From positions 1 through 57,563 of the IMG/VR virus record IMGVR_UViG_3300027736_000054: a stretch of 57,563 nucleotides of DNA, one strand, 5' to 3'. The DNA comes from a virus. The position numbers were made by a program, and so were the translations under genes. The notes under the pieces are model-generated. The model saw only the letters and a list, made by a program, of their open reading frames with translations. It was not told the origin of the DNA and made no database searches. Shown here one piece after another: positions 2,796-20,031 of the stretch (position 1 is its first letter; each line of letters starts with the position of its first letter).

Positions 2796-3611
2796 TTATT
2801 CGTACTTCTTCAGCTTCTTCTGCAACATGGCAACTTGTCGTTTAAGTTGGGCGTTTTCTGACTGGAATGTGTCTCGACTTCTGGTAACTGCTACCAATTC
2901 TATTTTTGTCAACCGCATCTCTTCCTTCAATTCGGTTATCAAATCTTTGGCCATGTCTTTATCTTCTGTCGTTCCATCAATAGAAGCAATAGCTAACTGT
3001 TCTTTCAGTTTGTCGTTCTCTGCCAACAAAGTATCAACCATTACATCGGCCTCGCTTACCTCGTCCCCTTTTATTTCTGGTGGTAACGTTTCCATTGGTG
3101 TGCGCTTGTTGACTGTACGCTCCCTGACGCTTCCTTTGTTGTCCTGATATTTGCGTGTTTCTTCGTGCGGGCTCTCTAAAGACGCTCTAAGTTTGCCAAC
3201 AAACGGATGGCTGACACCGCAATGCCGTGCTATCTCTCGGTCACTCCACTTCGACCACTCCGAATCTTGGAGCATATCTAAAACTATCTTTCGCTTATCC
3301 TCTGCCGTAGGTCGCAACCCGTGGGCCATGTTTGCTTTGTAACTGTAGAGTTTGGCATCTCGCAAAGTGCCAGCAATAACATCTGCCAATATACCTGCCT
3401 TGTCTAACTTTAGGTGAGCAAAGTAGCGGTGGAAACCATCCGCCAAATAGTGGTGGATGCCATCATTAAAAACTATGACTGGAGGAAACTTTGCCCCCTC
3501 TTCCATCTGTCTTGCGTAATCATCTACTGTCTCTTGGTTAATCTCCGCTCTTGGCTGTGTGCCTGCGTTTATTGTGATTATTTTTATGTTTAACATTTGA
3601 TTCTCTTTCAT
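2796..3611 (-). CDS. ParB/Spo0J-like DNA-binding protein
   Basis: The protein has 271 residues. The N-terminal 110 or so resemble the ParB/sulfiredoxin fold: DGFHRYFAH matches the DGxHR-type motif, preceded by a VIVFNDG strand. A helix-turn-helix follows near 115-140 (SDREIARHCGVSH). The rest is an acidic linker and a C-terminal coiled coil, which suggests a dimer. Chromosomal ParB proteins bind palindromic parS sites and spread as CTP clamps. No parA gene is visible, so segregation is not assured; transcriptional control is an alternative. Seven copies of one 14-bp palindrome occur in this window, one inside this gene (3081-3094). Confidence 0.8.
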   Translation of the reverse strand: MKENQMLNIKIITINAGTQPRAEINQETVDDYARQMEEGAKFPPVIVFNDGIHHYLADGFHRYFAHLKLDKAGILADVIAGTLRDAKLYSYKANMAHGLRPTAEDKRKIVLDMLQDSEWSKWSDREIARHCGVSHPFVGKLRASLESPHEETRKYQDNKGSVRERTVNKRTPMETLPPEIKGDEVSEADVMVDTLLAENDKLKEQLAIASIDGTTEDKDMAKDLITELKEEMRLTKIELVAVTRSRDTFQSENAQLKRQVAMLQKKLKKYE

Positions 3612-3760
3612 AGTTGATTTTCTCCCATTAACCAGCCTGCTCTAAAAGCAACCCACTGGTTTTGGATTCTTGGTTTGTCGTATCGCCTTCCGTTCCATCC
3701 CAATTCTGTATAGCCCTTAGAAGCCATCCACAATTCAAATTTCTCTTTTACTTTTTCCAC
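3608..3760 (-). CDS. 50-residue hypothetical protein (GTG start)
   Basis: This short frame starts with GTG at 3760, preceded by AAGGA at a good spacing, and ends in a TGA that overlaps the ParB-like start. The product is rich in tryptophan and aromatic residues (WMASKGY, WNGRRYD, WVAFRAGW), which suggests a small folded helical protein. Its upstream neighbour overlaps its start by 13 bp. Overlap on both sides supports a real gene. Function unknown. Confidence 0.55.
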   Translation of the reverse strand: MEKVKEKFELWMASKGYTELGWNGRRYDKPRIQNQWVAFRAGWLMGENQL

Positions 3761-6000: not shown

Positions 6001-6035
6001 CCGATAGATATCTAAAACATAGATGCGTAGGGGAC

Positions 6036-6142
6036 AATAAAAAAGCCGCTTACTACTGCCCTCGGTAGGAACCCTACGGATTAAACCAAGGGCAAGGGCA
6101 TGAGTAAACGGCTTTAAAACCTGTCGCTTCCTACGGCAACAG
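6036..6142 (-). ncRNA. Short structured RNA with its own promoter and terminator
   Basis: A consensus promoter ends at 6148, giving an expected start near 6141, and a T-run closes the transcript near 6039. The roughly 105-nt RNA has a 7-bp 5' hairpin (CUGUUGC with GCGACAG), then a long terminator-type helix of 12 bp enclosing a UGCCCU/AGGGCA helix. GUAGGAA in the first loop is complementary to UUCCUAC inside the second hairpin, so a loop-loop contact or a switch is possible. It could be a free regulatory RNA or an attenuator leader for the leftward operon. Confidence 0.6.
6039..6114 (-). terminator. Rho-independent terminator of the short RNA
   Basis: On the minus strand 12 bases at 6114-6103 pair with 12 bases at 6054-6043 (one G-U pair), followed by six U residues (6044-6039). 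A second helix sits in the loop. The stem is long and closed, typical of an intrinsic terminator. Confidence 0.65.
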
Positions 6143-6147
6143 TTCCG

Positions 6148-6175
6148 ATTATACAGATATTTTAATCGGTGTCAA
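6148..6175 (-). promoter_or_regulatory. Consensus sigma70 promoter, leftward
   Basis: On the minus strand TTGACA (6175-6170), a 16-bp spacer and TATAAT (6153-6148) match both sigma70 hexamers perfectly. It reads into the short RNA, and beyond that into the large structured region and the leftward operon if the terminator is passed. Confidence 0.8.
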
Positions 6176-6608: not shown

Positions 6609-6659
6609 TTGACAACACACAATAAACCAGTTATAATCCCATCACTTAGACCAGTTATG
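6609..6659 (+). promoter_or_regulatory. Perfect sigma70 promoter with a pair of ACCAGTTAT operators, rightward
   Basis: TTGACA (6609-6614), a 17-bp spacer and TATAAT (6632-6637) form an exact consensus promoter pointing right. ACCAGTTAT occurs at 6626-6634, overlapping the -10 box, and at 6650-6658, just past the expected start near 6644. They are 24 bp apart, as at 5436/5460. A bound protein at the first site would block the polymerase, so repression is likely. The transcript would run through the hairpin array toward the recombination operon. Confidence 0.8.
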
Positions 6660-6660
6660 T

Positions 6661-7763
6661 ATGGTCTGGTGCGGTTAGGCGGGGTAGGTTGAGGCAAGGT
6701 AGGCTGCGGGCTGACAACAGTCGATAGGTGATTAGCAATAGTCATCCTTCGAGTGAGGTGGGGTCAGGTGCGGTTAGGTGTGGTAAGTTTAGGTTTGGTG
6801 AGGCGAGGTAAGGGCTGACAACAGTCGATAGGTGATTAGCAATAGTCATCCTTCGAGTGGGATTTGGTACGGTAGGGTCGAGCGGGGTGAGGTCAGGTTG
6901 GGTGGGGTAAGGTCCGGTGCGGTATGGTAAGGAACTAGCAATAGTCGATGGGTGATTAGAAATAGTCATCTTTCGAGTGGGGTTAGGTTATGCTGGGTAA
7001 GGCAGGGTGCGGCGAGGTATGGACTGACAACAGTCGATAGGCAATTCAATGAGTTGCTCTTCGAGTGTTCGGTAAGGTAAGGTACGGTAAGGCGAGGTCT
7101 GGCGAGGTAGGGTATGGAAAGGTGCGGCTTGGTTTGGACTGATAACAGTCGGTTGAAGATTGGCAACAGTCTTTTTCCGAGTGTTTTGTTGGGGTAGGGT
7201 ACGGTAAGGCTAGGTCAGGTTTGGTCGGGTAGGGCGTGGAACTAGTAATAGTCGATAGGACATTTTCACAAGTGTCTCTTCGAGTATTGAATTCGGTGCG
7301 GTGGGGTGGGGTCGGGTATGGTTGGTTTGGGTTTTGTCGGGTTGGGTAATGTATGGGCTGACAACAGTCGATAGGGCATTAGAAATAGTGTTCCTTCGAG
7401 TGTTAATCAAATGGGGCTTGGTCGGGTTCGGACGGTTTGGTCGGGCGAGGCTGGGTGCGGTGCGGTGAAGTCAGGCACGGTTTGGCAAGGAACTAGCAAT
7501 AGTCGATAGGTGATTAGAAATAGTCATCCTTCGAGTACTGCGGTGAGGTGCGGCAAGGGACGGTTTGGTTAGGTGGGGTCGGGCGAGGTACGGTCGGGCA
7601 AGGCATGGAACTAGCAATAGTCGATAGGGTATTGGAAACAGTACCACTTCGAGTGGGGTTAGGTGCGGTGTGTTACGGCACGGTATGGAGAGGCGAGGTA
7701 TGGCAAGGTCAGGTATGGGCTAATGTAGCGGATAGGGTATTGGTAACAGTACCACTTCCGATG
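6661..7763 (+). repeat. Array of ten covarying hairpins separated by period-5 GGYNN tracts
   Basis: This 1.1-kb region has no gene that I accept. It alternates tracts in which GG recurs every five bases (GGT or GGC then two free bases, up to about 13 units) with conserved blocks. In each block a 31-32 base hairpin lies at 6721-6752, 6825-6856, 6945-6976, 7034-7064, 7149-7180, 7252-7283, 7368-7399, 7503-7534, 7621-7652 and 7729-7760. The shared plan is an outer 4-bp stem, a one-base bulge, 2 bp, a 4-bp stem of variable sequence, 3 bp and a loop that is GNRA in eight of ten copies on the plus strand. A smaller hairpin precedes most copies. The strong promoter at 6609 reads into it. Function unknown; I know no matching family. 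Confidence 0.85.
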
Positions 7764-7797: not shown

Positions 7798-8364
7798 ATG
7801 AAACAACTTTCAATCAAAATCAACGGCACGGCTCCATTACTTATGCACTCAGATAGGTTTGCAGACCCGCTCAATCCATTAACCAAGGCGCACAAAGAGT
7901 TAACCGGCAAGCGCAAGAAGACAGATGATGATTTAATTGCCATTGCTAAAAGTGAATTTATTGGTAGCTGCTATTGGAATAACTCTGTTGGCTTTCATCT
8001 GCCATCACAAATGTTGGAAAGCTGTTTAATTAATGGCGCAAAACTTCAAAAACTTGGCACTAAATTTAAACAAAGTGTACGGGTGCTTGAAGATGAACTT
8101 CCATTGGTTGGTTACACCAAAACAAATCCCGAAAAACTTTGGGACAACCCTGAGATGCGTGACGCACGAGGCGTAAGAGTTGGAACATCAAAGATTATTC
8201 GTTACCGCCCAATCTTTAGACAATGGAGTTTGTCGGCCACAATCACAATTGACGAGGATGTTGTTAACGTCAACGAGGTTAAGAAAGCCATTGAAGATGC
8301 TGGGAAACTAATTGGCCTTGGGGATTACCGTCCACGTTTTGGTCGTTTTGAGGCAGTAATCTGA
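7798..8364 (+). CDS. First gene of the recombination operon; RAMP-like glycine-rich loop
   Basis: The 188-residue product contains beta-rich segments and ends in GLGDYRPRFGRFEAV. That ending resembles the glycine-rich loop near the C-terminus of RAMP (Cas7-like, ferredoxin-fold) proteins. Other RAMP-defining features cannot be checked by eye, so this is a weak fold suggestion. The start has AGGAAAA upstream and follows the hairpin array by about 35 bp. The stop overlaps the next start (TGATG). Its position with a Cas4-like nuclease and an annealase points to nucleic-acid binding during recombination. Confidence 0.6.
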   Translation: MKQLSIKINGTAPLLMHSDRFADPLNPLTKAHKELTGKRKKTDDDLIAIAKSEFIGSCYWNNSVGFHLPSQMLESCLINGAKLQKLGTKFKQSVRVLEDELPLVGYTKTNPEKLWDNPEMRDARGVRVGTSKIIRYRPIFRQWSLSATITIDEDVVNVNEVKKAIEDAGKLIGLGDYRPRFGRFEAVI

Positions 8365-8849
8365 TGGATACAACGCTTTACCCTGCATGGAAAGAGGCTG
8401 TTAAGCGGCTTCTTGATGGTGGCATGACCTACGGCAGTACGGTTAAGCGCAGTTATTTAATTGAATTGTGTGGAGTAGCGCCCCCCACTTCAATTGAAGA
8501 TGTGCGTAGATACGATTTGGAAGTGCTGAAGTGCATAACCGACATTAAAGATACGCTACTGACTGCTCACTGTATGTTGTTGGCAACCGACAATGCCGGT
8601 AGTTATGTTGTTATTGCGCCTGAATCTCAGACGCAATACGCCGTAGACAATGGTGTTAAGGCCATTACTAAAGAGATGAAGAAGATGGCAATGAATGTTA
8701 GCTTCACTAAGACGGCCTTACTTTCAGACCCGCAACGAGCAAAGAATGCTGATGCGCAAGCAAAGATTTCTATGTTGGCGGGGATGATGGGCAAGGAGAA
8801 TCGGGAACTTAAACGCTTGGCCGGAACAAGAAATGAAATTAACGAATAA
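8364..8849 (+). CDS. Hypothetical protein of the recombination operon
   Basis: The 161-residue product has a helical N-terminal half with VKRSYLIELCGVAPP and an RRYDLEVLKC segment, and a polar, helical C-terminus. No catalytic motif is visible. It is coupled to the preceding gene by TGATG and overlaps the nuclease gene by 17 bp. The setting suggests an accessory of the nuclease-annealase system, but nothing in the sequence proves it. Confidence 0.6.
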   Translation: MDTTLYPAWKEAVKRLLDGGMTYGSTVKRSYLIELCGVAPPTSIEDVRRYDLEVLKCITDIKDTLLTAHCMLLATDNAGSYVVIAPESQTQYAVDNGVKAITKEMKKMAMNVSFTKTALLSDPQRAKNADAQAKISMLAGMMGKENRELKRLAGTRNEINE

Positions 8850-11918: not shown

Positions 11919-12190
11919 ACAACAAACTTACCGCCAAGGAGCGGGCGTATATAGGGCTGGTTAAAGAATTACCATGTTCTGTATGCAATGCATCAGGTCC
12001 ATCAGACGCACACCACATAGAACAGAAATTACAATTCTGTGTGGTGGCTTTGTGTAAAGATTGCCATCAGGGTTCTATGATGGGATGGCACGGACAAAAG
12101 CGGATGTGGAAGATTAAAAAGATGGACGAACTAGATGCCTTAGACGTTACTATTCAACGAGTGATGGAAACTTTAAAATCACTTCTTTAA
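11915..12190 (+). CDS. Ref-like HNH nuclease
   Basis: I use the TTG at 11915, which overlaps the preceding TGA as TTGA. The longer frame from 11864 lies inside the previous gene. The 91-residue product carries CSVCNASGPSDAHHIE, then CVVALCKDCHQG and GWHG. This gives two CxxC zinc ligand pairs and an HH pair typical of the HNH/Ref (recombination enhancement function) proteins of phages such as P1. Ref is a RecA-dependent nuclease, so it fits a recombination operon. The gene ends in a 12-bp convergent overlap with the long ejection protein gene. Confidence 0.7.
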   Translation: MNNKLTAKERAYIGLVKELPCSVCNASGPSDAHHIEQKLQFCVVALCKDCHQGSMMGWHGQKRMWKIKKMDELDALDVTIQRVMETLKSLL

Positions 12191-15100
12191 AGACTTTCTA
12201 AGCGATTCTGTTTGCTCGGCCACCATAGAAATTAATTCTTTCATGCGGTCAATTTCTTTTCTTTTGGCCGCACCATCCATTGTCTTGTCATTTGTAATAA
12301 CGCTAATCTGCTGCCTGATTTGCGCCATAACTTTAGATTGGCGGTCATAGGTTTTAGCCAGTGCTATTTTGTCTCCCTTTTCACGCATGATTTTTATGAC
12401 TTTTTCTGTGTCGCCAATGGCGGCATAATGCCTCATGTCAGCCATTGCTTGACTAATCTCTTTGTTGCTCTCGTAGAAAGCCGTGGCAAATTTAGACTGG
12501 TTAGATGGTAAAGATTTAACAAGACCCACACTAGCCCTGTCTACCCACTTGCTATCGGGATAAGCCCCTTCTTTAAACGGCATAACCGCATAGTGAGAGG
12601 TCTCAGCAATAGCACTTCCAAGCCAACCAAAATAAGCCTTGATTGCGTAATCCATTTGCACCGGTGACATTCCCTCGCCAGTAAACGGCATGACGCTAGA
12701 AAGGCCGCCAAGGGCTATAGCAAGCGGGCTAGTAGTATCGGTTGTGCGCTCCTGTTTAGACAGCCGCTCCAGACCAGCAGACTCAATAGGCGCACCAGTA
12801 AACGAATCTTTGTTGGCGTACAAATCTACCAATGGCTTGGCAATCTGAGGCAAGTTAACAGCAAATGTATCCGTTACCATGCGTTTCAAAGAATCTTCAA
12901 ATTGTTTGCCCTCTGCTTCTTTGTCAAAAACTTGTTCGGCTATACGTTCGGCCAAAGTTCCAAATGCACCAATTTCAAATGGTTTGGGTACACGCAAGGC
13001 GTAATCCATTCCGGGCAGTTTGAACCACCAGAAGTTATCCCTATCCCATTCGTCCCGTTTCTTAAATTCATCATCATCCTTAAACGCAAAGTACAGGGCC
13101 AAAGATGCAAGGCACACTGAGGCGGTAACGATGCTAAAAGAAGCGGCCTTCTGCTGGTCTGTCAGCTTCTGTCTTTCGCCCTTTTCAGTCAACTTTCCTT
13201 GCTCATCCACATCCCAAAGTGATTTGCCGGTTATGGTGTTGTAAGCAACCCTAGTGGTTGGGGTAATACCATCTCTGCCAAGTTTGTATAGTCCTTGTAC
13301 ACGAGCATTCAAGAATGGAATAACTTGGGCAACCTGACGAAACGCAGGCCACGAACCTGACATAGAAAAGTCCAACAAATCACGAGCATTAAACGATGCT
13401 TCAAGGTGGCTCATTCCCTTGTCTCTCATCTGAGTGTACAAAGCCATGCGGTTAGCAGACTCAGATTTATTGCCCCACTCTTGATACTTATCCCATGCTA
13501 TCTTCAAGCCTTCTTTAACTTTGACTGGGCTATCAAGAATGTGTTCTGGTTTAACGCCTTGCGCAACAAGACGCTTAATCATTTTTGCTTGGTCGCCCTC
13601 ATAGGTTGAGCCAAAGTTAAATATAGCGCCACCAGCAAGAGCAGATATATAGGCTGGTCTGTCTTTATTACTCTCAGCCCATCCATTAACAATGTTAGCA
13701 AATGGATTTTTCTTTAAATCACTAACGGCCATAGCAGATATGGAATCACGAATCAAGTTTCTAACTTTAAATGCAGGAGAAATAGTAACCCCGTATTGGA
13801 GCATATTCTTAAAGTCTCTTGCTACATCTAGGAATTTATTTGATGTACCCAAATACCCAATAGATGAAATAGAATCTAAAAGCATGGGGTCAAGAACGTT
13901 GTAATAAGCTGGACTTCCAGCTACCATTATTTTAACATTTATTTTGCCAGACTTGCCGGTTGCAGGAGTAGTCATCCAAGGTTCTATTTGACCATCCTTA
14001 TAAACCTCTGCATCTTCGTATATATTTCCATCCTCATCTTTCTTGCGAACAACAACATTTACTTTGTCATCAATCATTACAAACTGTTGTTTCAGGTTTG
14101 GCTCTGCGCCGCCCATAAGAATGGCTGCATCTATTGTGGCTTTGGCTGCTTGCGCCTTCATGGATGCGGAAAGTATATGACTCCAGTTACGCAAAGTGTT
14201 TTCCATCAAGTCGGCAAATGGACTTTCCCCGCCCTTTAATTCTTTAGAAAAATGTTGATTGGTCAGGCTAGATGCCGTCATCACCGCATCAATATCCCCG
14301 TCTTCCATCTCACGATAGAAAGGAATGTAGTTAATGTCGTTAACAAATCGCTCATATCCTATTGGGTCTTTGCGTAACTCATCAATTTTTTGTTGTAACT
14401 CTTCTATTTGCCTGTCTTTGGCGCCGTTGCTTAAACCTTCTTTGTTTTCTATGTAATCTATTTGCTCTTGGATTCTCTTAATCATATTGGCAGTTGAATC
14501 AATCAACCCCATCTCAAGAGCAACTTTAAGCACAGACTCATTTAATTTTTGCATATCTTTACGAACAGACTCGTAAAGTTCTTTGCGAGACTTACCATTC
14601 AAATCGCCTTTAATAAGCTCTTCTCTTTTGGCCACTAATTCAGGCATGATGTCTTTGCCATTTTTATCTATAAATCTAGACCGTTTATTGGCTGGTAAAT
14701 TAGCCTCCCTAGTCAATGCCTTCCACATATTAAATCGGTCAACCTCAACGCCTAAAGGCTTAAGTATTTCTAACAAACCTTTTGTATTTGGCTTAATGTT
14801 TAATGCTCCACCGTCATTAAATACCTCTCCATACATCATTAAGCCTTCAAGCACACCATCAACAGATTTGGATAAGCGGGCTAACATATATGCAACAGGG
14901 CTGTATTCTTTGATGGTTCTAAACTGGTCAGCCATTCCTTGGGCCACTTTTTTCCAAAAACCGTCTCGCAACCCGTTAATGCGGTCAACAATTGTTTTCT
15001 TTTGTGGAGCAAAAACAGGTTGAGCATTGTTCATAAACTCAGGAGATACGCCATCAAATGATTCAGGCCTCAAAGGCTGTCTCTTTTGTAAAGAGGCATT

Positions 15101-18100
15101 AAACTTTCCTTTTATTTTTTCGCCTATGCCTTCTTCTTCGGCAACTTCTTTTGCGCTCTCAGGAGTTGATTTTGGTTTAACTGGCGCAACCGTTTTGCTT
15201 CCAATTTTGCCTATTGCTTTTTCCGTTACATCTGTGGATGTTTCTAACAAAGAATCGGCAGCCCTAACCACTGCATCCAAGGCGGTTTCATATTGAACAT
15301 CTAAACCAAGGAGTTTTCTAAATATTTCAACCATGCGTGTTAACGCATTGGTATTGCCAACCTTAATCGTGGTTAAATAATCTTGAAAGTTTGGGTCGGT
15401 TAATCCCCAAGCAACCAATTCTTTAACATTTTTAACGGTATTTGTATTGTAATTAGCAATGTATGTAAGAAATGGGTGTTGTTTACCAGCTTTTACATCT
15501 GCATCTATTTGTTTCTTTACTTTGTTAAGCACAACAGATAGGTCGTTAAATTCTTTGCCGTTGGCGCTCAATGCAGGAACGGTGGCGGCGTGTAATAACT
15601 CATGCAAAATAGTAATGTATCGAGTGCCGGTATTGCTATGGGCTTTGCCGTTTTTTAAACCAGCAAACTGAAAGTGTCCATAACTAAAATTAACCGCATA
15701 TCTAAATCTACCACGCCATCTAAGGTCATCTCTATTTAAAACAGCAACTGGTTTATTAAAAAAATTCCTAGCATCTAATTCTTTAATTCGAGCCAAAACT
15801 TTTTCAGCAATGGCTTTTGCTGCACTATTGGGCGCATTATCAACCGTCCATTGAGCAAGTTCTGTAGCTGTCATGCCTTTAATTTCTTTGGCAATCTGCT
15901 CCATAGGCTTTTTAATTTTAAAGTCTTTTGGTTCTGGTAAGTCTATTGGCGAATCGGGTTTAGTAAATAAATCAGGCGAACCTTCGGACTTTAAAGATTT
16001 AAACACATCAGACAAAGAAAGCTTGGGTTTTTCACCAAACATATCTTCGCCCGCCTGTGATTGGTCATAAGCAGCATCAGCCAAATTACCAATCAATTCG
16101 CCCATACGTTTGCCTGAGCGACTATTTTCAGCAAACATTTCCAATATTGCTAGTGTGTTGGGGTCTAATCCTATTTGACCTTGTGCTACAAAATCTGAGA
16201 GCTTCATGCCGCTACGTTTTGCAGTAACAGCCAACTCTGCCGCCTCAACAATGTTGGGACGAATATCGTACTCGCCAGCCCCCTCTAACTTAGAAACGTT
16301 TGAGGCCGACCTAGCTAGAGCTTGTAAAATTAACTTTGCTTCTGGGTCTGCCGCTTGTGCATACAGATTTATTAAACTATCGCTACCATATGCTTTGTAA
16401 AAAATGGCATTGTTTAGCCTATCAATAGCTTTGGTATTGGGTACGCCTTTGCTGTCAAGCAATTCGCCCTGTTCTTCTTTAGGCATACCTTTGACAAACT
16501 GAACCAATGATTGAGTGTTAACGCTGCCATCTTCGCCGTATTGAAGTCCAGACAAATCAAAGCGGTTTAGGTCATTCTTTGCCGCCTCTACTGGGTTAAG
16601 CCTTAACTGTCCAGCCACATTAGAAACATCGCCAATGTCGGACGTAACAAATGACTTAGGCATAATCCTAACCAACACAGGATTATCCATGTCTAATATT
16701 TGACCTTGTTCAATACCGTGCTGATTATCATTGGCCATTGCTGAACGATAGTCGCTTGCGGTATCGCTACCATAGGCGGCCTGTAGTCCTGCTATGCGAC
16801 CATTGCCTGCAACAGCACGAATTGCTTGAGTGGAAACGTTACCATAATCAGAGTTTGTTCTGCCATCTGCTGTGTGTGATGCAAGCAATTGACCGGCATC
16901 TATAACTGCGTATTGAACGGGAATCTTCCTGCCGTCAGAGGCAGTAGCCACATCTATCCTACCCAGTTGATTGTCCGGAATGGTCAAATCACTAATAACT
17001 ACAGGCGCACCAGACCCAAAATCAGGGGATGTTTTAAGTCGGTCGTAGTCAGGTTTAGATGCAATACCTTGCACTTGCTGAATAGATGCAGCCGTAGCAC
17101 GGTCACGGTTTTGCAACTTAGCAAATATATCTGCCGCATCATCAGGCAATCCTTGCGTGTAATTTTTTAACGCATCCAAATCTGGTTGTTTTATTTCTGC
17201 CTTGGCAGCGGGAGGCATTTTGAGAGTAGGTGGTTGAGAAACATCTGTTGATGGCGGAACAATTTCAGCAGGAGGAGCGGTATTTTCAACAGGTGGCGCA
17301 GCGGTTTGGGTATTAGGTTGATTTATTGATGCTTTAATTTCATCAACGGGTGGTTTAATAACTGTTGGTTCTTTTTCAATTGCGGCGGGTCGTTGAGCTA
17401 ATCCTGTAACACCACCCATACCAACACCACCAACCGCAGCCATACCAGCAGTTTGCCCTAAACCCTCAACCAAACTTTGTTCTGGTTTGACTTCACGCAC
17501 AGCAAGGTTTTCAGAAAACTTTCCTCCAACCTCTTCTGCTATTTCACTGGCACCCTCGCCTAAAGCGCCTTTAACTCCGCTTGCAACACGGCCAGTCAAA
17601 CCTCTTGCGGCAACTTTACCAACTTCTTTAGGTACACCAACCAATGCCTTTTCAATTGTTTGTGCGCCGGGTAATTTTTGAGCCAACAAAGAAAGGATTG
17701 CAGCCGATGCACCTGTAGCACGGGCTAGGTTTAACGCACCTTCAGCAGCCTCTTCGTCTGATGCGCCCTTTGATTTTAATTCTTTGTAAATGTTTTCATA
17801 AGCGCCAGCACCCACATCTGCGCCTTGCTGTACCGCTCCTGCGCCAACAGCCGATTTAACAGCCGTTTTTCCAGCAAGTTTTACCGCCTCTTCTGCAACC
17901 AATCCTTTGCCAGCAGAACGAGCTAAAGATATTGCCGCACCCGCCTTACCCGCTCCAAATGGAACTAGTAGTTGAGGCGCTTGCTCTGCCAAAAAGTTAA
18001 GAAGCAACGCAGGGTTTGTAATTGTTTCGCCAAATGCAGTGCCAAATGCAGCAAGCTGTCCCTTTTTTTCTGCCTCTGCTATCTTGGTTGCCCTGTCTTG

Positions 18101-18493
18101 TTCCATTTGTTTAAGTGCGGGAGACTTCATTTCCTCGCCGTACTCTTGCATTCGTTTGCCTACGCTCTTTTGACCTTCTAATATTGCCTGCCCTACGGGG
18201 CCTCCAGCAATAGCCATGCCTGCAATTTGTCTTGCTTTGTCAACATTAGTTTCTGCTGGTTTGCCCATATCGCCAGTAACCAAGCCATACAGTTGCCCCG
18301 GCAATTGAACCAAAGAGCCTGTGCCAGAAACAACACCAGCACCCACATCTTTAATTGCCTCGCCCCACGTTCTTTCTAAAGGTTTTGCTTGGACCTTTGG
18401 TCGTCTTGGTGCTAAGTCTGATGGTAAGTCGTCCTCTGGTACAGCCCTGCTCACTAGCCTTTCGGGAAGGTCGTCAAGAGGTACTGTTGCCAT
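12179..18493 (-). CDS. Giant polyvalent ejection-type protein with ParB-like, zincin and LPD38-like regions
   Basis: The 2104-residue product starts at the ATG at 18493, which shares a base with the preceding stop (TAATG). After a glycine/alanine-rich hydrophobic N-terminal part there is a DdrB-type ParB-like region near 495-665 (SDGRKIPVQYAVID, RAVAGNGRIAGLQ). A zinc protease motif ILHELLHAA lies near residue 964. A C-terminal region near 1555-1900 (GVTISPAFKVRNLIRD) matches what I recall of large polyvalent protein domain 38. Such proteins are packaged in the virion and delivered with the DNA, where they can degrade or shield host factors. It is the last gene of the late block. Confidence 0.75.
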   Translation of the reverse strand: MATVPLDDLPERLVSRAVPEDDLPSDLAPRRPKVQAKPLERTWGEAIKDVGAGVVSGTGSLVQLPGQLYGLVTGDMGKPAETNVDKARQIAGMAIAGGPVGQAILEGQKSVGKRMQEYGEEMKSPALKQMEQDRATKIAEAEKKGQLAAFGTAFGETITNPALLLNFLAEQAPQLLVPFGAGKAGAAISLARSAGKGLVAEEAVKLAGKTAVKSAVGAGAVQQGADVGAGAYENIYKELKSKGASDEEAAEGALNLARATGASAAILSLLAQKLPGAQTIEKALVGVPKEVGKVAARGLTGRVASGVKGALGEGASEIAEEVGGKFSENLAVREVKPEQSLVEGLGQTAGMAAVGGVGMGGVTGLAQRPAAIEKEPTVIKPPVDEIKASINQPNTQTAAPPVENTAPPAEIVPPSTDVSQPPTLKMPPAAKAEIKQPDLDALKNYTQGLPDDAADIFAKLQNRDRATAASIQQVQGIASKPDYDRLKTSPDFGSGAPVVISDLTIPDNQLGRIDVATASDGRKIPVQYAVIDAGQLLASHTADGRTNSDYGNVSTQAIRAVAGNGRIAGLQAAYGSDTASDYRSAMANDNQHGIEQGQILDMDNPVLVRIMPKSFVTSDIGDVSNVAGQLRLNPVEAAKNDLNRFDLSGLQYGEDGSVNTQSLVQFVKGMPKEEQGELLDSKGVPNTKAIDRLNNAIFYKAYGSDSLINLYAQAADPEAKLILQALARSASNVSKLEGAGEYDIRPNIVEAAELAVTAKRSGMKLSDFVAQGQIGLDPNTLAILEMFAENSRSGKRMGELIGNLADAAYDQSQAGEDMFGEKPKLSLSDVFKSLKSEGSPDLFTKPDSPIDLPEPKDFKIKKPMEQIAKEIKGMTATELAQWTVDNAPNSAAKAIAEKVLARIKELDARNFFNKPVAVLNRDDLRWRGRFRYAVNFSYGHFQFAGLKNGKAHSNTGTRYITILHELLHAATVPALSANGKEFNDLSVVLNKVKKQIDADVKAGKQHPFLTYIANYNTNTVKNVKELVAWGLTDPNFQDYLTTIKVGNTNALTRMVEIFRKLLGLDVQYETALDAVVRAADSLLETSTDVTEKAIGKIGSKTVAPVKPKSTPESAKEVAEEEGIGEKIKGKFNASLQKRQPLRPESFDGVSPEFMNNAQPVFAPQKKTIVDRINGLRDGFWKKVAQGMADQFRTIKEYSPVAYMLARLSKSVDGVLEGLMMYGEVFNDGGALNIKPNTKGLLEILKPLGVEVDRFNMWKALTREANLPANKRSRFIDKNGKDIMPELVAKREELIKGDLNGKSRKELYESVRKDMQKLNESVLKVALEMGLIDSTANMIKRIQEQIDYIENKEGLSNGAKDRQIEELQQKIDELRKDPIGYERFVNDINYIPFYREMEDGDIDAVMTASSLTNQHFSKELKGGESPFADLMENTLRNWSHILSASMKAQAAKATIDAAILMGGAEPNLKQQFVMIDDKVNVVVRKKDEDGNIYEDAEVYKDGQIEPWMTTPATGKSGKINVKIMVAGSPAYYNVLDPMLLDSISSIGYLGTSNKFLDVARDFKNMLQYGVTISPAFKVRNLIRDSISAMAVSDLKKNPFANIVNGWAESNKDRPAYISALAGGAIFNFGSTYEGDQAKMIKRLVAQGVKPEHILDSPVKVKEGLKIAWDKYQEWGNKSESANRMALYTQMRDKGMSHLEASFNARDLLDFSMSGSWPAFRQVAQVIPFLNARVQGLYKLGRDGITPTTRVAYNTITGKSLWDVDEQGKLTEKGERQKLTDQQKAASFSIVTASVCLASLALYFAFKDDDEFKKRDEWDRDNFWWFKLPGMDYALRVPKPFEIGAFGTLAERIAEQVFDKEAEGKQFEDSLKRMVTDTFAVNLPQIAKPLVDLYANKDSFTGAPIESAGLERLSKQERTTDTTSPLAIALGGLSSVMPFTGEGMSPVQMDYAIKAYFGWLGSAIAETSHYAVMPFKEGAYPDSKWVDRASVGLVKSLPSNQSKFATAFYESNKEISQAMADMRHYAAIGDTEKVIKIMREKGDKIALAKTYDRQSKVMAQIRQQISVITNDKTMDGAAKRKEIDRMKELISMVAEQTESLRKSLKK

Positions 18494-20031
18494 TATGCAT
18501 ACTCCCACTTCCCATTACGATAGATGATTGGTTTACCAGAATTAGAGGTTGCTTTATCCCCCTCTTTGGCTCCGCCCGTTGGCGGCTTTTTCATTTTCTC
18601 TGTAAACTCTAACATACGTTGAGCATAATCTTCGGCATTATTAACGCCTTGTTTTTTCCAATTATCCTTTTCCATAAGGTCCATTTTGTTCCAGTCTTGC
18701 AGATGCCTTTCAACCAATGCATTTCTACTGCTTTCTAAACGACCAGAAGATTTATCAACGTAGAATTGGGCAAATGCTTCGGCCTCTGTTTTTTCTGCAT
18801 TTTTGGGGTCGGCCTTAAACATTCTGTAATAGTCATCAAAGTTTTTCTTTTCTTGAGTAGGCGCACCTTGTCTAAATTCCTCAAGCGCTCTTGCAGAACC
18901 AGCCCTAATGCCTTCAAGTTTAATATCATGCTTGGAACGAATTTCCGCCAACTCTTTCTCATTAGCAAATCTACTCTTAGCAAGTTCAATTTCATTTGCA
19001 TAACGGGCTTTTTCTCTATCAAGTTCATTGCCCGCCCTAAACGATTCAGCCGCAAATGTTCTGCCGGTTGTACCACGCTCTGTTCTCTGCTTCTCAAGAG
19101 AACCAAGACCTGCCGTAGCCATGCCAATAGCCTCTTGTCTACGAGCCGCCTCAATCTCAGCAAGTAATTTGTTTTGTTCTTTGGTATTTGCTTGGTCAGC
19201 ACTTCGTTCTGCACTCATCTGAGCCAAATAAGCAGGACCAGCACCGCCCAAACTGCCTCTAGCCATACCACCAAGAACAGCCATGACACGCTCATAATCT
19301 CTATCGGATATTGCCTTTTGATATTCTTCCTGTTGCTTTTTAATTCCTGCCTCTGCTTGGTCTCCGTACTGACCCTTGACTCCGGCAAGCTCTCTCATTT
19401 TTGTTTGAGCCGCCATAATATCTTCAGGCGTTTGTACCTTTAAAGTCTCTTTAGCGGCAGTTAAAAACTCTGGGTCTAATTGGTTTTGTGCGGTAGGAGC
19501 GGGTTGAGGTATTGTGCTTTGCTGACCTTGCGCCGACCTAATAATTTCTTGCATCTCTCTGCGCCGTGCTTCTTCAGGCGTTTCTGCCACAGGAACATCG
19601 CTTCGTTGTTCTCCAGCAAAAGCAATAATTCCACCGCTTCCATATTGGAAAAACTCTGAACCTATTGGTAACTGTGCCACCCCACCCATAGCCATTTGAG
19701 CCTCTTCTTGTGGTTGTGGTTGTGGAATACCTTCAGGTACGGGCATAGGTTGCTGCTGCCCTTGTTGCATCATCTGTTGCTGTGCTTGTTTTTGTTGTTG
19801 AGCTTGAAGAGCCATTAGCCCAGCCTTCTGTTCTAACTGGTCTTTAAGAGTTGGCGCACCAGCACCTTGTGCGGCTTGGTTTTCTTGCTCTCGTTTATTC
19901 ATTGCTTCTCTGCGATTTAATTCGCCTTGAGCCATCCAAGCAGGAACTTCTGGATTTAATCCATTTTGATATTCAATTAATTTTTGTGGAGCAACTTCTT
20001 TTAAATGCTCATTTATTTGAACGAGATTCAT
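18493..20031 (-). CDS. Glutamine-rich internal virion protein candidate
   Basis: The 512-residue product has a short folded N-terminus (VPAWMAQGELNRREAM) and a glutamine-rich linker. Two glycine motifs follow (MGGVAQLP, YGSGGIIAFAGE), then a very long charged coiled coil. This composition, the position among other long coiled-coil genes downstream of the tail genes, and coupling to the giant protein suggest an ejected internal protein. No enzymatic motif is visible. It overlaps the giant gene by one base. Confidence 0.6.
   Translation of the reverse strand: MNLVQINEHLKEVAPQKLIEYQNGLNPEVPAWMAQGELNRREAMNKREQENQAAQGAGAPTLKDQLEQKAGLMALQAQQQKQAQQQMMQQGQQQPMPVPEGIPQPQPQEEAQMAMGGVAQLPIGSEFFQYGSGGIIAFAGEQRSDVPVAETPEEARRREMQEIIRSAQGQQSTIPQPAPTAQNQLDPEFLTAAKETLKVQTPEDIMAAQTKMRELAGVKGQYGDQAEAGIKKQQEEYQKAISDRDYERVMAVLGGMARGSLGGAGPAYLAQMSAERSADQANTKEQNKLLAEIEAARRQEAIGMATAGLGSLEKQRTERGTTGRTFAAESFRAGNELDREKARYANEIELAKSRFANEKELAEIRSKHDIKLEGIRAGSARALEEFRQGAPTQEKKNFDDYYRMFKADPKNAEKTEAEAFAQFYVDKSSGRLESSRNALVERHLQDWNKMDLMEKDNWKKQGVNNAEDYAQRMLEFTEKMKKPPTGGAKEGDKATSNSGKPIIYRNGKWEYA

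What the first reader, a model, noticed from the sequence alone, without database searches (positions are those of the whole stretch)
6711..7763. Ten hairpins with compensatory changes in a tandem array: a candidate new RNA element
Seen directly: ten copies share one fold although their stems differ. The outer stem is TCGA/TCGA in eight copies but TCGG/CCGA in copy 5 (7149-7180) and CGGA/TCCG in copy 10 (7729-7760). The inner 4-bp stem reads GTGA/TCAT, GCAA/TTGC, AAGA/TCTT, GACA/TGTC, GGCA/TGTT or GGTA/TACC. The pair closing the loop changes between A-T and G-C, with C-G and T-A in single copies. A single-base bulge is kept on each side. Eight loops are GNRA on the plus strand only (GCAA, GAAA, GTAA), which points to a rightward RNA rather than DNA structure. 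Known knowledge: paired substitutions and GNRA caps are standard marks of selected RNA structure. Inference: the array is a functional transcript, perhaps a protein sponge, a packaged RNA, a leader controlling the recombination operon, or an anti-host RNA.
Basis: partly seen in the sequence, partly recalled or inferred. Interest (0 to 1): 0.95.

Follow-up and report, generated by a model that had tools for sequence, protein, structure and literature searches.

The report
Phage VIPR guide-RNA array, ten units
The ten hairpins are the 3' ends of ten guide RNAs of a phage-borne VIPR system, a recently described relative of CRISPR that phages use against competing phages; this is a well-preserved new member of that known kind, with ten guides in a row.

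Summary
In detail: ten structured elements in which all 14 modelled base pairs are kept in every copy, with compensatory changes at 8. It is only half of the object. Each hairpin unit is the 3' tail of an RNA whose 5' part is a strict five-base repeat, GGY-NN, 8-13 units long. A perfect sigma-70 promoter (6609-6637) points into the array. The next gene (7798-8364) is a 188-aa RAMP/Cas7-fold protein, 43% identical to Vipr of phage SUSP1, followed by a vap1-like gene. This is the VIPR system of preprint PMC13142463, most likely type II; 20 of 23 related bacterial loci carry such arrays. The published decoding rule (read NN, skip one target base) was re-tested: relatives' guides hit 18 or 20 consecutive code bases, which no other skip length or shuffle reached. 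Window vrRNA 5 matches 22 of 22 bases in a VapE replication gene of enterobacterial prophages, with skips on codon position 3. Possible new detail: the tail-proximal dinucleotide is nearly fixed and apparently unread. New member of a known kind.

The parts
6609..6637 (+). sigma-70 promoter, TTGACA-17-TATAAT (12 of 12), start site expected near 6645
   Evidence: two perfect sites in 57.6 kb, 0.04 expected
6663..6707 (+). vrRNA 1 guide tract, 9 GGYNN units
6708..6754 (+). vrRNA 1 tail, two hairpins
6757..6811 (+). vrRNA 2 guide tract, 11 units
6812..6858 (+). vrRNA 2 tail
6866..6930 (+). vrRNA 3 guide tract, 13 units (one degenerate unit AGCGG)
6931..6978 (+). vrRNA 3 tail
6981..7020 (+). vrRNA 4 guide tract, 8 units
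7021..7066 (+). vrRNA 4 tail
7071..7135 (+). vrRNA 5 guide tract, 13 units; units 2-12 match a prophage VapE gene 22 of 22
7136..7182 (+). vrRNA 5 tail
7193..7237 (+). vrRNA 6 guide tract, 9 units (10 if 7188-7192 GTTGG is counted)
7238..7285 (+). vrRNA 6 tail
7295..7354 (+). vrRNA 7 guide tract, 12 units
7355..7401 (+). vrRNA 7 tail
7439..7488 (+). vrRNA 8 guide tract, 10 in-phase units; a few more upstream (from about 7415) after a one-base phase slip
7489..7536 (+). vrRNA 8 tail
7542..7606 (+). vrRNA 9 guide tract, 13 units
7607..7654 (+). vrRNA 9 tail
7657..7716 (+). vrRNA 10 guide tract, 12 units
7717..7762 (+). vrRNA 10 tail
7798..8364 (+). vipr gene: 188-aa RAMP (Cas7-like) protein, phrog_4652
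8364..8849 (+). vap1-like gene (161 aa), phrog_5926, homologous to the gene after vipr in SUSP1, Medea1 and LESphi2

Best explanation
This is a VIPR locus (Viral Interference Programmable Repeat), most likely type II: a promoter, an array of ten vrRNAs, the vipr gene and a vap1-like gene. Each vrRNA is roughly 85-125 nt: 8-13 GGY-NN units followed by a two-hairpin tail. Vipr subunits (Cas7-like) line up along the pentamers, holding the GGY bases and exposing the NN dinucleotides; the NN series pairs with double-stranded DNA while one target base is skipped between dinucleotides. Binding blocks transcription of a gene in a competing phage, prophage or satellite. Here vrRNA 5 is predicted to hit a VapE-type primase/helicase gene. 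Shown here: sequence anatomy, RNA covariation, homology and fold of Vipr, homology of the vap1-like protein, the skip rule on relatives' guides. Taken from the preprint for SUSP1 and P. fulva: RNA expression, RNP formation, DNA binding, repression, phage interference. Inferred: that this phage's copy does the same and that VapE-bearing elements are its competitors.
For: GGYNN tracts of 8-13 units before every hairpin; the preprint defines vrRNAs as 9-16 YNNGG repeats plus a structured tail. Vipr 43% identical over full length to SUSP1 Vipr, E 6e-63; AlphaFold model pLDDT 93, the 41 PDB matches below E 0.001 are all CRISPR RAMP subunits, Z 10.8 to type VII Cas7. Gene after vipr homologous to SUSP1's (E 6e-9). 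Same arrays beside relatives' vipr genes in viral contigs, phages and 20 of 23 bacterial or MAG loci. Skip rule: 3 of 81 guides (two near-identical) reach 18/18 at one-base skip in 0.27 Mb on both strands, none at skips 0, 2, 3 and none in 10 shuffles; targets are a Bro-N antirepressor (20/20) and a phage tail J gene (18/18), skips on codon position 3. Window vrRNA 5: 22/22 in 17 contigs and 21/22 in two more, one VapE gene family, codon position 3; the same units in reversed order gave 3 scattered hits. Perfect promoter.
Against: No transcript or protein data for this phage. Only one of ten guides found a convincing target; scans for vrRNAs 3, 9 and 10 gave none or chance-like hits. The VapE hits are in enterobacterial prophages, while the nearest Vipr relative in a cellular genome is in a Rhodoferax MAG, so the true target is probably an unsampled homologue. 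The tail here varies between copies whereas the preprint calls its tails invariable, and no pseudoknot was tested. The class rests on one preprint.
Confidence: 0.95

Rival explanations
1. A structured RNA array that acts as a protein sponge, packaged RNA or leader of the downstream recombination operon; the spacers between hairpins carry no information.
For: Covarying hairpins and a promoter into the array; recombination genes (exonuclease, Erf) lie downstream.
Against: The spacers are strict GGYNN tracts whose NN positions are near-random while GGY is fixed; relatives place the same kind of array and vipr next to quite different genes; decoded NN series hit phage genes in codon register.
Confidence: 0.03
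2. A CRISPR-like array proper, with contiguous spacers and acquired memory.
For: Repeats with hairpins, variable intervals, Cas7-like protein next door.
Against: Intervals are periodic; no other cas genes among the neighbours tested (the Cas4-like score belongs to the phage exonuclease); contiguous reading (skip 0) finds nothing.
Confidence: 0.01
3. A VIPR locus that is decaying or no longer used: ten guides but several with off-register or degenerate units.
For: vrRNA 8 has a one-base slip; vrRNAs 3, 4 and 7 carry units such as AGCGG, TGCTG, TGTCG; few targets found.
Against: vipr and vap1-like genes are intact; every tail keeps all pairs; the promoter is perfect; single GGY departures also occur in relatives and in SUSP1.
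Confidence: 0.05

Closest known systems
VIPR of Escherichia phage SUSP1 (type II, PMC13142463)
   Same: Vipr homologue (43% identity), vap1-like gene directly after vipr, GGY/NN guide tracts followed by a structured 3' tail
   Different: SUSP1 has one vrRNA upstream and three downstream; here ten, all upstream of vipr behind one promoter. Tail sequences differ; here two stacked hairpins with copy-to-copy compensatory changes
VIPR arrays of Pseudomonas prophages and phages (Medea1, LESphi2, loci L013, L018, L021, L027; the preprint's P. fulva clade is probably of this kind)
   Same: Tail begins GGGCT, small GCTG/CAGC hairpin, then in several a hairpin with the AUU/AGU core; arrays of several vrRNAs
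   Different: Order of vrRNAs and genes varies; Vipr 44-56% identical; guides all different
Class 1 CRISPR RAMP complexes (Csm3, type VII Cas7, Csf2)
   Same: Fold of the backbone protein; RNA with variable guide and structured handle
   Different: No CRISPR repeats, no contiguous spacers, no other cas genes; single small protein
TIGR-Tas arrays (PMC12045711)
   Same: Phage-borne tandem guide RNA array with non-CRISPR logic
   Different: Tas proteins are a different protein family (Nop-type RNA-binding domain, own knowledge); here a RAMP protein and a pentamer code

Membership tests
VIPR system | Vipr: small RAMP-fold protein (about 20 kDa) with one RRM core | tested here: met
   188 aa; 43% identity to SUSP1 Vipr; model pLDDT 93, best PDB matches all CRISPR RAMPs
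VIPR system | vrRNA with 9-16 tandem YNNGG repeats, GGY fixed and NN variable | tested here: met
   ten tracts of 8-13 units; NN entropy about 3.6 of 4 bits away from the tail
VIPR system | Structured 3' tail after the repeat tract | tested here: met
   100% of cells paired, covariation in copies and relatives
VIPR system | Minimal locus with vipr plus a vap gene in a phage or prophage | tested here: met
   vipr 7798-8364, vap1 homologue 8364-8849; window is an IMG/VR virus record with terminase, portal and head genes
VIPR system | 1-nt-skip code for DNA targets, skips on codon wobble positions | tested here: met
   relatives' guides: perfect 9-unit matches at skip 1 only; window vrRNA 5: 22/22 in VapE. 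For the other nine window guides no convincing target was found
VIPR system | vrRNA expression, binding to Vipr, transcriptional repression of the target | not testable with these tools
   needs bench work; a perfect promoter supports transcription
VIPR type II | Vipr phylogeny with SUSP1 and P. fulva, vap1, array architecture | tested here: inconclusive
   homology to SUSP1 Vipr and its neighbour and array shape fit; no tree of all seven types was built, the type references are not held
CRISPR-Cas | Contiguous spacers between identical repeats, cas1/cas2 and effector genes | tested here: not met
Any Rfam RNA family | Score above gathering threshold | tested here: not met
   no match in the window

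The most novel reading that the evidence does not exclude
The guide ends one unit before the tail: in this clade the tail-proximal dinucleotide is a near-fixed AA or AT (41 of 54 vrRNAs) and is not read, so it belongs to the handle; and the window phage carries a ten-guide arsenal in which guide 5 strikes the VapE replication gene of temperate competitors at its most conserved protein motif, so that synonymous escape is nearly impossible.
Probability: 0.5. Interest if true: 0.5.

Novelty: new member of a known kind. Interest (0 to 1): 0.45.

Why it matters
VIPR is a very new class of RNA-guided DNA recognition, proposed as older than CRISPR, known so far from one preprint. An independent, sequence-only encounter in an environmental phage, with ten guides, confirmed covariation of the tail and a re-test of the one-base-skip code, supports the class and supplies a long natural array. 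The apparently unread tail-proximal dinucleotide is a testable refinement of the guide boundary and useful for target prediction: including it in a search pattern can remove true hits.

Tried and rejected
Rfam scan of the window: nothing. Exact 10-unit scans of viral contigs for vrRNAs 9, 10 and 3 including the tail-proximal unit: nothing, later understood as perhaps a pattern error. vrRNA 10 without that unit: three unrelated hits that do not extend, treated as chance. vrRNA 9 without it: nothing; one 3-mismatch match in what reads as a flagellar hook protein gene of a genome from the Rhodoferax family, at about the chance rate, rejected. vrRNA 5 with up to 2 mismatches in 61 family and 274 class genomes: nothing. 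vrRNA 3 likewise. No vrRNA of the window matches the window phage itself above chance. Other vrRNAs do not hit the held parts of the VapE prophages. Structure from a single sequence was poor and replaced by an aligned run. CRISPR, sponge and leader readings rejected as stated under rivals.

Full report
What was checked. The ten hairpins are present at the stated places. Aligned, they keep all 14 modelled pairs in every distinct copy, with changes on both sides at 8 pairs; no shuffle of 500 reaches the score and sliding the partner by 1-3 columns destroys it. With 24 tails including relatives, 12 of 15 pairs show compensatory change and the U.G pair is kept in 23.

What lies between the hairpins. 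Written in fives, every interval reads GGY NN GGY NN. GG dinucleotides recur at lags 5, 10, 15, 20 (105, 94, 88, 81 of 183) and rarely at lags 3 or 8. Each tract has 8-13 units and runs directly into the tail. A consensus promoter with all 12 of 12 bases and a 17-nt spacer lies at 6609-6637 on the plus strand, one of only two perfect sites in the window against 0.04 expected. The transcript would start near 6645 (inference) and run through all ten units towards the gene at 7798.

What it is. A literature search for RAMP, phage and guide RNA returned one matching description, a 2026 preprint on VIPR systems (PMC13142463): a phage-encoded RAMP protein, Vipr, and vrRNAs of alternating GGY/NN motifs with a structured tail, which bind double-stranded DNA by pairing only the NN dinucleotides and skipping one target base between them. 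The gene at 7798-8364 is 43% identical over its whole length to the SUSP1 gene next to that phage's vrRNAs. Its AlphaFold model, built with 27 sequences, has mean pLDDT 93; the 41 PDB matches below E 0.001 are all CRISPR RAMP subunits, with Z up to 10.8 for type VII Cas7 and about 10 for Csm3. The following gene is homologous to the gene in the same place in SUSP1, Medea1 and LESphi2, taken to be the preprint's vap1. Twenty of 23 bacterial or MAG loci that encode a Vipr relative carry GGYNN arrays nearby; the three without are among the more distant.

Does the code work here. I decoded 81 guide tracts from the window and relatives and compared every nine-unit stretch with the held DNA outside the arrays (0.27 Mb, both strands; loci fetched by guide patterns left out). 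With a one-base skip three tracts (two of them near-identical) find 18 of 18 bases; with skips 0, 2 and 3 the best are 17, 16, 16; ten shuffles of unit order never pass 17. Extended, a Pseudomonas typographi prophage guide matches 20 of 20 bases in a Bro-N antirepressor gene beside another VIPR locus, and a Pseudomonas prophage guide 18 of 18 in the tail J gene of phage Medea1; skipped bases fall on codon position 3. This independently supports the preprint's rule.

Targets of the window's own guides. vrRNA 5 (units 4-12) was scanned against IMG/VR: 21 contigs matched, 19 of them the same VapE-type primase/helicase gene and one more a distant VapE-like gene (L052); in 17 contigs the match extends to units 2-12, 22 of 22 bases, in L040 and L047 one base of unit 2 differs; the skipped base is the third codon position in all 19, over the peptide NTKELESIKAF. 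A control with the same nine units in reversed order gave three scattered hits. Since a nine-unit pattern has a background of about three hits per scan, the weight lies in the extension, the register and the gene, not in the number of contigs, which are one gene family. Relatives of that gene sit in E. coli prophages annotated as VapE. Guides 3, 9 and 10 gave nothing convincing; guides 1, 2, 4, 6, 7 and 8 were compared only with held DNA.

A detail not found in the preprint's main text. The dinucleotide next to the tail is AA or AT in 41 of 54 vrRNAs (entropy 2.06 bits against about 3.6 elsewhere; the second from the tail shows a weaker bias, 3.24), and it is not matched in any of the decoded targets. 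I infer that it belongs to the handle. The sample for the mismatch is three targets, so this is a lead.

Verdict. A VIPR array with ten guides, a new member of a known, very recent kind. Function in this phage is inferred by homology; nothing was measured here.

Noticed in passing
window 6022-6175, minus strand: A second perfect sigma-70 promoter (TTGACA-16-TATAAT, 6175-6148) followed by a very stable long hairpin ending in a T run (fold z-score -6.6): candidate small RNA, no Rfam match.
   Followed up: partly
window 12179-18508, minus strand: 2109-aa protein whose N-terminal 480 residues match a PHROG family annotated as virion RNA polymerase (E 3e-22) and which otherwise resembles giant phage proteins of unknown function.
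   Followed up: no
L003 4308-4972: Related viral contig with six vrRNAs upstream of vipr; the last one, next to the gene, lacks the second tail hairpin.
   Followed up: no
L026 3543-4153 and L033 2256-2841: MAG contigs with unusually long GGYNN runs (27 units in one tract at L026, longer in L033) near vipr homologues: possibly fused or staggered vrRNAs.
   Followed up: no
L030, L031, L032: Vipr homologues (29-39% identity) without a recognisable GGY/NN array within 3 kb at the threshold used; L031 has GGANN-type runs near 3535-3700, maybe a variant consensus.
   Followed up: no
L062 1350-2111: The E. coli prophage region around the VapE homologue carries a TIR-domain gene between its DNA polymerase and VRR-NUC genes, a possible defence gene.
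   Followed up: no
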